From: a virus
Direction: 5' to 3' (one strand)
Virus record (IMG/VR): IMGVR_UViG_3300045117_000143
Coordinates: 1-36,391 of that record
Length of the DNA stretch: 36,391 nt
Part shown: in pieces, positions 8,913 through 35,992 of the stretch
Layout: every line of letters starts with the position of its first letter
Position numbering within the stretch: the first letter of the stretch is position 1
The notes under the pieces: model-generated
Told to the model about the DNA's origin: nothing
The model's input: only the letters and a program-made list of their open reading frames with translations
The model's database searches: none
Program-made: the position numbers and the translations under genes

Positions 8913-9060
8913 GCTTACGTCGCGCGTTGCTGGCTGTGCGCCGATGACCGCGCTTGCGTCTGTCCCCGATGTGCGCGATCCTCATGGTGTCGTTTTCCCT
9001 GGGGCGCGGCTGCCCTCGCCCGGTGGCCGCGCCCACCCAACGCGGAGGTGCACACCATGA
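8905..9060 (+). CDS. Possible 51-residue protein filling the gap, uncertain
   Basis: This short frame overlaps the previous gene's end (ATGACTAG) and ends with TGA at 9058-9060, making an ATGA overlap with the next start. That both-sided coupling matches its neighbours. However, its ribosome binding site is weak (AAGG directly before ATG) and its composition (Pro/Arg/Ala-rich, MTRLTSRVAGCAP...) is unlike a folded protein. The only other content of 8913-9056 is the strong GGAGG of the next gene. Treat as a candidate only. Confidence 0.25.
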   Translation: MTRLTSRVAGCAPMTALASVPDVRDPHGVVFPGARLPSPGGRAHPTRRCTP

Positions 9061-9932
9061 ACGCAGTAGAGCACTACGACTGGACGCTGGCCGCCATCAT
9101 GGAGGCTGGATACCCGCCCGAAACCGCCCACCTGATCGGCCTGTTTGACCGCACTGTGGATGCCGCGCAAGCGGGCGAGTTGGCGAACTTCGCGATCCAC
9201 GGCCATCCGCTCCCGGCTGTCACGCAGAGCTACGACTGGCAATGGTGGCGGTCCTCGCAGCATTGGGATACCTTCGCCCGGATCTGGACTTTGTATCACT
9301 TCGGGGGCCGCGAGGCGCTCCTGTATTCGCTCGCGTGCCAGCAAGGCGACGGCCTCTTCGACCTCAATGCGGCAATTACCGACATGCGGAGCCTGCACGC
9401 ACAGCACAAGTTCATCCCGCTCCGGCTCTGTGCGCGGCTCGGCTTGCGCCTGCACCTGTGGCAAGACACATATTCGCATCAGGGGTTCCGGGGCTGGCGG
9501 GACGAGCGCAACCGGGCCAAGCGGGGGCCGCTGGCGGCGTTCTGCCCGGCCATCGGGCACGCGGAGTTTGGCGAGCAACCGGACGAATTCTGGCGCGTCT
9601 GGCGGGGCCCGGGGAACGTCGAGATCAACAACCGCTGGCGCTACTGGCGGATGGCCGTGGACCTGTGGGCGTTGCTCACAGGCGAGGTGTGCGACGTGAC
9701 GAACGGGGCGGCCAAGAGCGCGACGGATTGGGCCTGCGTCGGGAAAGACGGGGCCATGCGACAACCCGAATGTTGCCGGATGTTTCTGGAGGCCAAAGAC
9801 GACGACGACTTGCGGGCGCGGTGCGCGGATCTCGTGCTTCGCAAGAGCGGGCGGCCCCTGCCCAAGTACGAGCGTCCGGGGCCGCTCACGGACACCTGGC
9901 GGGCGTTCTGCGCGGTGGCGCATGAGGTGTAG
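9057..9932 (+). CDS. Putative metal-dependent hydrolase, DUF6765/zinc phospholipase C-like motif
   Basis: A 291-residue protein starting at ATG 9057 after CGGAGGTGCACACC; a GTG three codons earlier is too close to that site. Residues 133-144 read HLWQDTYSHQGF, an H-x3-D-x3-H pattern. I recall this from the DUF6765 family and, more distantly, from zinc-dependent phospholipase C/S1-P1 nuclease folds, where such residues hold zinc. Other candidate ligands are H50 near the N-terminus, H70-D71 (QHWDTF) and H81. There is no signal peptide or membrane helix. The next gene encodes a cell-wall hydrolase, so a role in lysis or envelope degradation is an attractive inference, not a demonstration. Confidence 0.55.
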   Translation: MNAVEHYDWTLAAIMEAGYPPETAHLIGLFDRTVDAAQAGELANFAIHGHPLPAVTQSYDWQWWRSSQHWDTFARIWTLYHFGGREALLYSLACQQGDGLFDLNAAITDMRSLHAQHKFIPLRLCARLGLRLHLWQDTYSHQGFRGWRDERNRAKRGPLAAFCPAIGHAEFGEQPDEFWRVWRGPGNVEINNRWRYWRMAVDLWALLTGEVCDVTNGAAKSATDWACVGKDGAMRQPECCRMFLEAKDDDDLRARCADLVLRKSGRPLPKYERPGPLTDTWRAFCAVAHEV

Positions 9933-31871: not shown

Positions 31872-32936
31872 TTACCCTCCTATCGTGAGCTTGGAGCCGC
31901 CCGGACTGATCCCAGTGCCGAGCGTGCTGATTATCTGCCAGGCCGCCGAGTCGGGGAAGTGGACGCCCACGCACCACGCGCCGGCCTTCACCATCTCTTC
32001 CCCGAGCTTGCCGTCGCCGTCCTGAATCCACGACTGCACCACCTGCGCGGCCAGCGGCGTTTCGCCGTGATTGATGCGGAACGACTTGCCCGCGGTCTTC
32101 TGCATGTAGTCGATTGCCATGCCCTCAATCGCTTCGGGCGTCCACACGTCGTTTTCCCCATCCTTGACGCCCGGCTCGGCCACGATGAAATGTGCGATCT
32201 GCTTGGCCGCGTTGGCCTTGCACAGTCGGCCCGTGAACGCCAGCGGGGGGGCGTCGGCCTTCTTCAACTCGGCCAGCATCCCCCGCGCCTTCTCCTGCAA
32301 CGCCTTCTTCTTGTCGTCGTCCAGGCCCGGCGCGGTGCTCTGCGGGATGCGGGCAATGGCGTTCGTCAGGTGCGGGCGGTCCAGCTTGCCCGCGGCATCC
32401 TTGATCGGAAAGTGCCGCTTGCTCCGGGGCGTGGTCTTGCCGTCCGCATCCTTCTCGCCGCCCGCTTCGATGTAGAGGAAGGCCGAGTCGGGCAGGTCGT
32501 TGACCTTGGCCGCGGTCCATTCGGCCTTTTCCATCGGCACGATGAGCGGCATCACCGGGGCCGCGAACAGGGCCAGTCCGCGCTTGTCGGCCTCGGCAAC
32601 GAGGGCCTTGGCTGCCTCTGCGAAGCGGGCATCGCCGCGTTGCTCCGTCGTCGCCGCCCACTCGTAGCGGTCGCAGAGCCAGAGCCACGCGCCCAAGACC
32701 TCGTAGTCGGACAGGCGGGTCAAGTCGCCCGTCGCCAGCGCCATCAGCGGGAGATTCAGGTCGAGGCCGTACATGAGCGCCCGGCGCATGAGCCAGCCGT
32801 ACTCCTCGTCGCCCATGACCTCCCGCGCCCGCTCCAACAGTTCGGCCACGCGGTCGGGGCCTTGCAGGTTGGCGTCGAGCAGCGCCACGACCATCTTTCC
32901 GTCAGCCTTCGTCATCGTCACCCGTCGTATTCTCAT
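31872..32936 (-). CDS. XkdF-like prohead protease with extra N-terminal domains
   Basis: A 354-residue protein; ATG 32936 has AGGAGG seven bases upstream. The C-terminal third (about 250-354) has the XkdF/S78-type layout. AHFIVAEPGVKDGENDVWTP is followed by IEGMAIDYMQKTAGKSFRINHGE (catalytic His candidate), VVQSWIQDGDG, GAWCVGVHFPDSAAWQII and GISPGGSK (catalytic Ser candidate). Residues 155-235 (LPDSAFLYIEAGG, KRHFPIKDAAGKLDRPHLTNAIARIPQS) resemble the DUF6582-type domain. The N-terminal 140 residues are unassigned. It likely processes capsid or scaffold. Fusion of these segments has been seen by me in other phages but should be checked. Confidence 0.75.
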   Translation of the reverse strand: MRIRRVTMTKADGKMVVALLDANLQGPDRVAELLERAREVMGDEEYGWLMRRALMYGLDLNLPLMALATGDLTRLSDYEVLGAWLWLCDRYEWAATTEQRGDARFAEAAKALVAEADKRGLALFAAPVMPLIVPMEKAEWTAAKVNDLPDSAFLYIEAGGEKDADGKTTPRSKRHFPIKDAAGKLDRPHLTNAIARIPQSTAPGLDDDKKKALQEKARGMLAELKKADAPPLAFTGRLCKANAAKQIAHFIVAEPGVKDGENDVWTPEAIEGMAIDYMQKTAGKSFRINHGETPLAAQVVQSWIQDGDGKLGEEMVKAGAWCVGVHFPDSAAWQIISTLGTGISPGGSKLTIGG

Positions 32937-32947
32937 CGTCTCGCCTC

Positions 32948-32974
32948 CTAGACCGGAGTCGTCACGCACCTTCA
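32948..32974 (-). other. In-frame TGA in a conserved C-terminal motif; possible read-through extension
   Basis: The minor head protein stops with TGA (32974-32972) directly after PPAHPD. Reading on gives TGA-R-C-V-T-T-P-V and then TAG (32950-32948). Family members usually read PPxHPxCRC, so the TGA sits precisely at the expected first cysteine. The second stop TAG is placed just before the AGGAGG of the next gene, like a normal gene end. Confidence 0.5.
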
Positions 32975-33829
32975 GTCGGGGTGCGCTGGCGGCTCAGTTA
33001 TATCTGTATCTCCAAACGGCTCCCCAAGTTTTGCCCGCTCGCCGTGGAGCGAGCGGCACACTTCACACACGCGGCGCTCATCCTCCGCGGTCAGCCACTC
33101 GTATTCTTGATCTTCGGAGATCACACCCTCGGCCTGCAACTGCTCCCGCATGGCGGTCTTGCCGTGGTTGATCGCGCTCATGGCCTCGGTTCTGGCGATC
33201 GTCTCGGCCCGTTGGGCGAGGAGCTTGTCCGCGTACTTCGCAGCCAGCTTCTCGACCTTCTCCGCACTCTTGCCCGCCTCGAGGAGCGCCGCCTTGTACT
33301 TCTCGACGGCGAGCGACTGCCGGGGCAGGAGGCCGATGTTGCCCTTGATGGCTTTGGCTGTCTCGTAGGGATGCACGCCGTTCTCAATCCCGTAGCGCGT
33401 GAGCGCGCTGATCGTCTCCCGCGTCCCGGCGTTGATGCCCTTGACAGCCTCAGCGGTGTGCTCCCGCAACCACGCCGCAGTCGTCTCCGCATAGGGGTTG
33501 AGCACGGCCCCGGCCGCGGTGGGGATGGCCCCGGCCTCCAGATTGCCCGCGGCCACCATCGCCCGGCGCAACTCGTCCTCAATCAACGTCGTGCCCTGAT
33601 CCGCCGCGTTGAGGTGCGCGGCGGCCGCGGCCTGCTCCATGTTCTTCGCCTCGACCGCCTTGGCGATGGCCTCCACGTCGGCGTGCTTGCGAGCCTCGTC
33701 AATGGCCGCGCGGAACGCCTCCTGCATGGCCTTTTCGGTGGAGTTGGCGAGCGTCACTAGAGGGCGCGTCCAGCCCGGCTCGACCTTGAACACGCGGCGG
33801 GCCTTGCTCATGGGGAGGAAGCGGATCAT
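32972..33829 (-). CDS. Minor head protein, Mu gpF / SPP1 gp7-like, ends at unexpected TGA
   Basis: A 285-residue protein whose ATG 33829 overlaps the upstream stop (ATGA). The first 200 residues are helical. Residues 205-285 match the Mu-F domain: AETIARTEAMSAINHGKTAMREQL, YEWLTAEDERRVCEVCRSLHGE (C255, C258) and TEPPAHPD. Homologues continue HPxCRC, completing a metal-binding set with the CxxC; here the first of those cysteines is replaced by TGA. The protein is normally a few copies per virion near the portal and helps head assembly or DNA entry. Either the extra eight codons are lost or the stop is bypassed. Confidence 0.85.
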   Translation of the reverse strand: MIRFLPMSKARRVFKVEPGWTRPLVTLANSTEKAMQEAFRAAIDEARKHADVEAIAKAVEAKNMEQAAAAAHLNAADQGTTLIEDELRRAMVAAGNLEAGAIPTAAGAVLNPYAETTAAWLREHTAEAVKGINAGTRETISALTRYGIENGVHPYETAKAIKGNIGLLPRQSLAVEKYKAALLEAGKSAEKVEKLAAKYADKLLAQRAETIARTEAMSAINHGKTAMREQLQAEGVISEDQEYEWLTAEDERRVCEVCRSLHGERAKLGEPFGDTDITEPPAHPD

Positions 33830-34124: not shown

Positions 34125-34721
34125 CTACTTCACTTGCCCCATGATCCAATCGTGCGCCTCGCGCTCGGAATCAAAACCCTTGAGCGCGGGGCCGCCTATG
34201 CGATATGAGCCGATCCCCTTCCCGACCCACACTGGCTTGCCGCTGTAGAGGCCCTTGAAAGCCCCGCCGCCGTAGGAGTCGCGCTTGTCGTAGGCGACGA
34301 CGAAGAGGCCCGCGGCCTTTTCCTTGCGGCCCCACTTTTCTTTCAGTTCTCGGCACTCCTTGCGGATCGTGATCTTGCCGTCCTTCTGGTCGCAGAGCGT
34401 CTTGACTTCGATCCCCACCACGCGCCCGCTCGGGGACTTGAGCGTCACGTCCATCGGCGCATTGTCCGGCGTCACCGTCCCGTTGAATTGCGCGGCGAAG
34501 CTCCGCTGCGAGGCATCCCCGAGATCCTGCTTGTCTTTGCTGCTCGGATTGTACGCCGCCTTGCTCCGCTCGCTCTTCGTCTTGGTGGTCTCCGGGCCGC
34601 TCCCTTCCCCGAAGCGGCCCGCGTCGTCTCGGGGCTGATCGGGCGAATACTTGCACATCACGATCAGCCGCGGCGGGGCCGCCTTTCGCAAGGAGCGCGG
34701 AGGTAGGATTACAAAGGTCAT
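34125..34721 (-). CDS. Head-operon protein with RDDAGRF motif and PD-(D/E)XK-like nuclease domain
   Basis: A 198-residue protein starting in an ATGA overlap with the portal stop. Residues 28-42 (DQPRDDAGRFGEGSG) are a short motif often found at the ends of phage head proteins, sometimes before toxin or enzyme domains. Residues 70-198 include PMDVTLKSPSGRVVGIEVKT, giving D91 and E105-x-K107 in PD-(D/E)XK spacing. A helix (CRELKEKWGRKEKAAGLFVVAYD) and a basic, glycine-rich end follow. If folded as predicted it is a nuclease carried in the head module. An alternative start at 34658 has no good ribosome binding site. Confidence 0.6.
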   Translation of the reverse strand: MTFVILPPRSLRKAAPPRLIVMCKYSPDQPRDDAGRFGEGSGPETTKTKSERSKAAYNPSSKDKQDLGDASQRSFAAQFNGTVTPDNAPMDVTLKSPSGRVVGIEVKTLCDQKDGKITIRKECRELKEKWGRKEKAAGLFVVAYDKRDSYGGGAFKGLYSGKPVWVGKGIGSYRIGGPALKGFDSEREAHDWIMGQVK

Positions 34722-35992
34722 GCCTCGGCCTCCCCTTCCGGCAGCTTCGCGGCTTGTCGCAGATAGCGGTCAAGGCCCACGTCCGGCACGATCAGCCCGG
34801 CGTTGGTGAGGTTTGTAACGTAGGTTGACAACTCGACCAGATCCCGGCTCTCGATGTCGCCGTGCGTGAGTGTCGGGTAAGCCTCGGGCCGGATGCCGTT
34901 CAACTCGCACAGTTCATGAAAGAGCTGATCGTCGCTCTGCTCGGCCAGGTCGTCGAGGTAGGCGGCGATGGCGACCGCGAACATATCGGTTTTCGAGGAG
35001 GCCAGGGCGAACGAGCCGACCTTCTCGTGCCCGAGCATGACGAAATCCGCCAACACTGACTGCGCGATTTGCCGGTCGTAGCGGTTGATCGCGCCGTCGA
35101 TGTCGATGGCCCGCCGCCCCCCGGTGGACAGCAGGGACAGCGACCACAGTTCCTCACCGTTCGGCCCCTTGTCGCTCGGGAGGATCAGTCCCTCTTGCTG
35201 GTTGCGCTTGATGCGTCGAACGATGGTCTTGGCCTCGCTGTAGGCGGCGATCTCCTCGGGGCTTGCCTTGTCGCTCATGGACGCGCCCGGCATCCGCAGG
35301 ACCGGGAAGCCGGACAAGTCCCGCTCCATGCCGATGGCCTCGATCTCGGAAAGCCGCTTCGAGCGGTAGTAGGAAACATAGGCCGTCCGCAGAATCGAGC
35401 GGCCTTCAGGGTTGCCCTTGCCCTGGTCGTCGCAACGGTAGAGCAAGAGCTTTGCCGCGGGGATTTCAACCGTGGCATACTTCGGCGGGGCCTGTTGCAC
35501 GAGGCCCTGGATGTCGCCGTTGTCCGCGAGTCGCCATTGCAGGATCGTTTCCTGGGCGCGAAAGGCCAGCTTGCGGACGGCGATCATCCCGTCGTTTCGC
35601 AGGTAGTACACTTTCTCGAAGGGCGCGAACCCGAAAGGCAGGAACGACAGGGCGCGGGCGACGTGCTGGCCCCAACCCCCTTGCGACAGGCCATTCATGC
35701 AGCTTGTCGCAAAGTCGGCCGCGTCCTGGGCCTCCTGGCCGGACACGTCCGGGTGCGTTGACGGGGCGAAGCTCCAAGGCACTTGGCGGCAGAGTTTCGC
35801 GGTTGCGAAGAGGATGGCTCCGACAATGGGCGAATTGTCCCGCATTTCGCGTAGCGCCTGCTTGCCCTTGTCGCCTTTCAGGTCGGGGTGGAACTCCTCG
35901 TCCAGGTAGCCGTCATAGTGCGTGAGGCCGGTCGTGCCAAGCTCGGCTGTCAGCTTCGGGGTCAGCGTGGGTTTCTTGTCGTCGTCGGCCAT
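34718..35992 (-). CDS. Portal protein (DUF935/gp6-like)
   Basis: A 424-residue protein starting ATG 35992, three bases after the terminase stop, with GGATAGGAC upstream. Typical portal features are the N-terminal TTGLTHYDGYLDEEFHPDLKG, MRDNSPIVGAILFATAKLCRQVPWSF, then FGFAPFEKVYYLRNDGMIAVRKLAFR and NPEGRSILRTAYVSYYRSKRLSEIEAIGMERDLSGFPVLRMPG. Next comes the stem/crown helix region ASPEEIAAYSEAKTIVRRIKRNQQEGLILPSDK, and finally ADFVMLGHEKVGSFALASSKTDMF. It forms the dodecameric DNA channel at one capsid vertex. Gene order terminase-portal agrees. Confidence 0.9.
   Translation of the reverse strand: MADDDKKPTLTPKLTAELGTTGLTHYDGYLDEEFHPDLKGDKGKQALREMRDNSPIVGAILFATAKLCRQVPWSFAPSTHPDVSGQEAQDAADFATSCMNGLSQGGWGQHVARALSFLPFGFAPFEKVYYLRNDGMIAVRKLAFRAQETILQWRLADNGDIQGLVQQAPPKYATVEIPAAKLLLYRCDDQGKGNPEGRSILRTAYVSYYRSKRLSEIEAIGMERDLSGFPVLRMPGASMSDKASPEEIAAYSEAKTIVRRIKRNQQEGLILPSDKGPNGEELWSLSLLSTGGRRAIDIDGAINRYDRQIAQSVLADFVMLGHEKVGSFALASSKTDMFAVAIAAYLDDLAEQSDDQLFHELCELNGIRPEAYPTLTHGDIESRDLVELSTYVTNLTNAGLIVPDVGLDRYLRQAAKLPEGEAEA

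What the first reader, a model, noticed from the sequence alone, without database searches (positions are those of the whole stretch)
32948..32974. TGA exactly where the minor head protein's conserved cysteine codon should be
The Mu-F-like protein ends PPAHPD-TGA, but the frame continues TGA-R-C-V-T-T-P-V-TAG. Family members carry HPxCRC here, so TGA sits at the first Cys codon (one base from TGC or TGT) and the natural stop TAG follows eight codons later just before the next gene's AGGAGG. This is either a recent nonsense mutation or sequencing error, or a read-through/selenocysteine-like recoding at a metal-site cysteine. Other genes in the window end in TGA, so there is no global reassignment. 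No obvious stem was seen right after the TGA.
Basis: partly seen in the sequence, partly recalled or inferred. Interest (0 to 1): 0.75.

Follow-up and report, generated by a model that had tools for sequence, protein, structure and literature searches.

The report
Stop codon interrupting phage head gene
A phage head-assembly gene carries a stop codon exactly where its relatives have a conserved cysteine; this is most likely an isolated mutation or sequencing error, with no good evidence that the phage reads the stop as an amino acid.

Summary
The Mu-F minor head gene is on the minus strand (33829-32972). Its TGA (32974-32972) falls on a cysteine column that is invariant in 46 of 46 aligned homologues, and the read-on peptide RCVTTPV up to TAG (32950-32948) matches the family's CRC ending. 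The other metal-site residues (C255, C258, H283, C288) are intact.

Evidence for recoding is weak. The hairpin after the TGA meets the published bacterial SECIS criteria, but so do 28% of all TGAs in the window and 24% of ordinary Cys codons in homologues. No tRNA was found, the only Rfam hits are chance-level, and 23 of 44 genes end in TGA. No PAHP/PPHP-type Mu-F gene shares the TGA. Two very distant Mu-F genes (L338, L340) carry TGA at the same column; a matched scan at the next Cys found none under the standard code. Three scattered cases do not exceed plausible noise, but keep a selenocysteine reading formally open.

Best reading: an isolated nonsense change, real or a consensus error. Reads and close relatives, which would decide, were not available.

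The parts
32972..33829 (-). Mu-F-like minor head (head morphogenesis) gene as it stands, ending at the TGA, 285 aa
   Evidence: ORF; Pfam Phage_Mu_F 1.8e-15 for the read-through form; PHROG 3517 1e-38
32972..32974 (-). TGA at the invariant Cys column (residue 286)
32948..32971 (-). Downstream in-frame stretch R-C-V-T-T-P-V then TAG (32950-32948), homologous to the family C-terminus
   Evidence: predicted as a confident C-terminal strand, residues 289-292
33056..33067 (-). C255-x-x-C258, the first half of the presumed metal site, intact
   Evidence: invariant columns C255 and C258
32966..32983 (-). H283-P-D-(TGA)-R-C288, the second half of the presumed metal site
   Evidence: H283 invariant, C288 at 90% or more
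32937..32966 (-). Predicted RNA hairpin after the TGA (upper stem CUCC/GGAG, loop GGUCUA); it also holds the next gene's AGGAGG
   Evidence: at background frequency
31872..32936 (-). Next gene, XkdF-type (Peptidase_S78_2) prohead protease; Shine-Dalgarno AGGAGG at 32949-32944
   Evidence: Pfam 5.1e-14; sequence
34718..35992 (-). Portal protein, intact neighbour used to find relatives without bias towards the Cys
   Evidence: Pfam Portal_Mu 4.3e-24

Best explanation
The ancestor of this Mu-F gene most likely ended in the family's HPxCRC motif a few codons before the TAG, like its relatives. In this record the first Cys codon of that motif reads as a stop codon. It is either a real, isolated nonsense mutation in the sampled virus or provirus, or an error in the metagenomic consensus. 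If real, translation would end eight codons early, removing two of the four conserved cysteines and the last short strand of the C-terminal module, so the head protein would be impaired unless normal low-level UGA read-through rescues it. Shown: the position, the homology of the peptide beyond the TGA, and that no close relative in the searchable collections shares the TGA. Inferred: that it is a single recent change, and that the motif binds metal.
For: Cys at this column in 46 of 46 homologues, and a read-on ending homologous to theirs. Intact homologues on isolate plasmids end in the same way, HPNCRCTV... or HARCRCFI..., a few residues before their stop. No tRNA in the record, and no Rfam hit other than two chance-level matches. 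TGA ends 23 of 44 genes. The SECIS-like hairpin is at background. The other structural genes look intact.
Against: Stops inside conserved genes are rare in comparable viral contigs: none in about 39,000 aligned codons of portal, capsid and terminase, and none inside the other Mu-F matches. Two further, unrelated Mu-F genes have TGA at the same column, while a matched scan at the next Cys found none under the standard code. With counts this small (2 against 0) it proves nothing, but it is not what pure noise most predicts.
Confidence: 0.77

Rival explanations
1. Selenocysteine insertion: the host's Sec machinery reads the UGA with the help of the hairpin just downstream, so the head protein carries Sec in place of one metal-site Cys.
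For: TGA/Cys pairing in the alignment. The hairpin meets the published bSECIS rules: 4-bp upper stem, 6-nt loop starting GG, 17 nt from the UGA, energy below -7.5 kcal/mol (rules in PMC13188914; fold). TGA at the same column in L338 and L340. Sec as a possible metal ligand has been suggested for a few bacterial families (PMC13188914).
Against: The same rules are met at 247 of 883 TGAs in the window, 41 of 169 Cys codons of homologues and 114 of 500 shuffles. Folding z-scores are unremarkable. L338's lowest-energy loop does not start with G. The three TGA-bearing genes are mutually distant, with no TGA conserved within a clade. The site is a structural Cys, not a known redox site. A 2005 survey treated single sequences only as candidates because a sequencing error can cause an in-frame TGA (PMC1088965).
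Confidence: 0.07
2. Programmed or tolerated leaky UGA without Sec: near-cognate Trp-tRNA reads the UGA at low level, giving a mix of short and full-length minor head protein.
For: The extension is short, homologous, and followed by a second stop of a different kind. Low-copy minor head proteins may need little product (inference). Bacterial UGA is generally the leakiest stop (general knowledge, not tested here).
Against: Trp at this column was not seen in any homologue. No downstream structure stands out from background. No conservation of the TGA among relatives.
Confidence: 0.07
3. The protein naturally ends at HPD in this lineage: the last Cys pair was lost and the truncated protein is functional.
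For: A few relatives vary at the Cys pair: L203 has Gly at the first Cys and L229 has CEG in place of CRC. Some Mu-F subfamilies lack the CxxC pair.
Against: Here C255, C258 and H283 are all kept, and the R-C after the TGA is still recognisable, so any loss must be very recent. The next gene's AGGAGG overlaps the TAG, as if the TAG were the original end.
Confidence: 0.06

Closest known systems
Phage Mu protein F-like minor head proteins (Pfam PF04233, PHROG 3517/2468)
   Same: Whole-length homology, gene order portal - Mu-F - protease, CxxC ... HPxCxC module, chain ending within a few residues of CRC
   Different: TGA in place of the first Cys of CRC
Bacterial selenoproteins with a bSECIS element (e.g. 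E. coli formate dehydrogenase H)
   Same: UGA where homologues have Cys; a hairpin 17 nt downstream that meets the consensus rules
   Different: Hairpin not distinguishable from background; no conservation of UGA within a clade; structural rather than redox Cys; host Sec trait unknown
Leaky UGA read-through in phage structural genes (e.g. the Q-beta coat read-through; from general knowledge)
   Same: Structural gene with a UGA followed by an in-frame extension
   Different: Extension of only seven residues, completing a conserved domain rather than adding one
TGA-reassigned phages (code 4 or 25)
   Same: In-frame TGA in a Mu-F gene (L354-L356, L360-L364)
   Different: Those contigs are low-GC with many in-frame TGAs; this window ends 23 of 44 genes with TGA

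Membership tests
Mu-F-like minor head protein (PF04233) | Pfam profile match above the gathering score | tested here: met
   58.1 bits against 29.6, read-through form
Mu-F-like minor head protein (PF04233) | Lies between portal and prohead protease genes | tested here: met
   Portal_Mu 34718-35992, Peptidase_S78_2 at 31872-32936; two small ORFs of unknown function lie between portal and Mu-F
Mu-F-like minor head protein (PF04233) | Complete CxxC ... HPxCxC module in the translated product | tested here: not met
   Under the standard code the product stops at HPD
Bacterial selenoprotein | In-frame TGA aligned with Cys of homologues | tested here: met
Bacterial selenoprotein | SECIS stem-loop 16-37 nt downstream | tested here: inconclusive
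   Published rules met, but also by 28% of all TGAs in the window
Bacterial selenoprotein | TGA conserved in two or more related sequences | tested here: inconclusive
   No close relative shares it; two very distant Mu-F genes do
Bacterial selenoprotein | Host or phage encodes selA/selB/selC/selD | not testable with these tools
   The record is a virus contig with unknown host; no tRNA in it
TGA-reassigned genetic code | TGA absent as stop and frequent inside genes | tested here: not met
   23 of 44 genes end in TGA

The most novel reading that the evidence does not exclude
Some phages occasionally carry selenocysteine in the C-terminal metal site of their Mu-F minor head protein, with Sec and Cys forms exchanging repeatedly; this gene, L338 and L340 would be scattered examples.
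Probability: 0.05. Interest if true: 0.85.

Novelty: new member of a known kind. Interest (0 to 1): 0.27.

Why it matters
If it were recoding, it would be a selenoprotein, or a regulated read-through, in a phage structural protein; the recent review of prokaryotic selenoproteins that was searched (PMC13188914) does not mention phages or viruses at all. As an isolated nonsense change it matters only as a caution: a hairpin that fits the bSECIS rules turns up by chance after about a quarter of the TGAs in this sequence, so single metagenomic cases of TGA-at-Cys need reads or conserved relatives.

Tried and rejected
Global TGA reassignment: rejected, TGA is the commonest stop. Suppressor tRNA or an Rfam element in the record: none apart from two chance-level Rfam matches. 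SECIS as positive evidence: rejected after controls. Close relatives in IMG/VR and GTDB genomes by peptide patterns of this protein: none, but the tools may withhold records very near the window. A TGA-bearing Mu-F in two genome groups (the phyla of a Desulfobulbus and of a Clostridia genome, about 790 genomes): four pattern hits, none in a Mu-F gene. The matched control at the fourth Cys gave eight Mu-F genes, all from TGA-reassigned low-GC contigs, and no standard-code case. A blast survey of interrupted ORFs was swamped by spurious GC-rich frames and replaced by the HMM survey. A genome survey with the Mu-F profile gave few matches; its one 'TAG inside' (L325) lies near the start of the match, apparently upstream of the true start. 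Fold search against the PDB gave nothing significant.

Full report
What is there. The window is a 36,391-base virus record of unknown host, 66% GC. Its head-to-tail genes read on the minus strand: portal, two small ORFs, Mu-F, an XkdF-type protease, then capsid, tail and baseplate genes. The Mu-F ORF runs 33829-32972 and ends in TGA at 32974-32972. In the same frame follow seven codons, RCVTTPV, and TAG at 32950-32948. AGGAGG (32949-32944) overlaps this TAG, and the next gene's ATG is at 32936.

Is the TGA on the cysteine? Yes. Relatives were first found through the portal gene, which does not depend on the Cys. In the alignment of this gene with 14 of them, and with 46 in a larger set, column 286 is Cys in every homologue. 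C255, C258 and H283 are also invariant in the larger set, and C288 is nearly so. In 171 distinct sequences covering the column, the codons are TGC 100, TGT 69, GGC 1 and this one TGA. The stretch beyond the TGA is homologous to the family C-terminus, which commonly ends a few residues after CRC. An AlphaFold2 model of the read-through form is confident throughout the C-terminus (mean pLDDT 91; strand at 289-292). That the four cysteines bind a metal is an inference from the motif; no solved homologue was found.

Is the TGA shared? Pattern scans for P(A/P)HP(D/N)-TGA-(R/S)C gave 4 viral contigs and 93 genome contigs, none a Mu-F gene. Scanning the other common form, P(L/I/V/F/M)HP(D/N)-TGA-(R/S)C, gave five contigs. 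Two are Mu-F genes: L338 (47% GC; TGA, then RCGWLPKLAA and a stop; Mu-F profile match) and L340 (42% GC; TGA, then about 105 more codons; full-length homologues among Xanthomonas and Stenotrophomonas phages). Neither contig looks recoded. They resemble this gene no more than Mu-F genes generally do, so the three TGAs are taken as independent.

Noise or signal? The matched control, TGA at the next Cys (C288) in the same sequence context, gave 11 contigs: three chance matches and eight Mu-F genes from low-GC contigs in which TGA is a sense codon. So under the standard code there were two cases at the first Cys and none at the second. In portal, capsid and terminase matches no in-frame stop was seen in about 39,000 codons. 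This bounds the general nonsense rate at roughly 1e-4 per codon or lower. The number of Mu-F genes in a collection of 2.9 million contigs was not measured and may be large enough to give two or three cases by error. The subfamily of L338 also tolerates loss at this site: its relative L203 has Gly there, and L229 has Gly at the next one. The excess is suggestive at most.

Recoding signals. The RNA after the TGA folds as a hairpin with a 4-bp upper stem, loop GGUCUA, 17 nt from the UGA, -11.9 kcal/mol. These values satisfy the bacterial SECIS constraints given in PMC13188914. The control removes their weight: 247 of 883 TGAs of either strand in this window, 41 of 169 ordinary Cys codons of Mu-F homologues, 5 of 22 other TGA gene ends and 114 of 500 shuffles also satisfy them. 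Part of the stem is the next gene's Shine-Dalgarno sequence. No tRNA was found, and the only Rfam hits up to E = 5 are a CRISPR repeat and a snoRNA model, both below their gathering scores. TGA ends 23 of 44 genes. The 2005 Sargasso Sea survey classed single sequences only as candidates because a sequencing error can make an in-frame TGA (PMC1088965); by that rule this gene would be a candidate and no more.

Verdict. The most economical explanation is a single isolated nonsense change, in the virus or in the consensus. Selenocysteine and leaky read-through remain possible with low probability. Reads and close relatives, which would decide, could not be examined; the search tools state that records very near the window may be left out.

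Noticed in passing
L338:1524-2333 (+) and L340:1990-2709 (-): Two other Mu-F genes from unrelated viral contigs with TGA at the same conserved Cys column; in L340 the frame continues about 105 codons beyond it.
   Followed up: partly
L354, L355, L356, L360-L364: Low-GC viral contigs in which TGA is a sense codon (longest ORFs 103-181 aa under table 11 against 414-546 aa under table 4). By eye some TGAs align with Gly in sister sequences, which would fit code 25 rather than Trp. TGA also stands at the fourth Cys column of their Mu-F.
   Followed up: partly
L203 and L229: Mu-F relatives with Gly at the first or second Cys of the CRC motif, showing that the pair is not absolutely invariant.
   Followed up: no
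window 9048-9932 (+): ORF matching DUF6765 (Pfam 9.8e-20), a family of unknown function, in a phage record.
   Followed up: no
window 32937-32966 (-): Predicted hairpin that pairs the next gene's AGGAGG with an upstream CUCC; it might couple protease translation to Mu-F translation reaching the TAG.
   Followed up: no
window, all genes: TAG is a common stop for this high-GC phage (17 of 44 genes, against 4 TAA).
   Followed up: no
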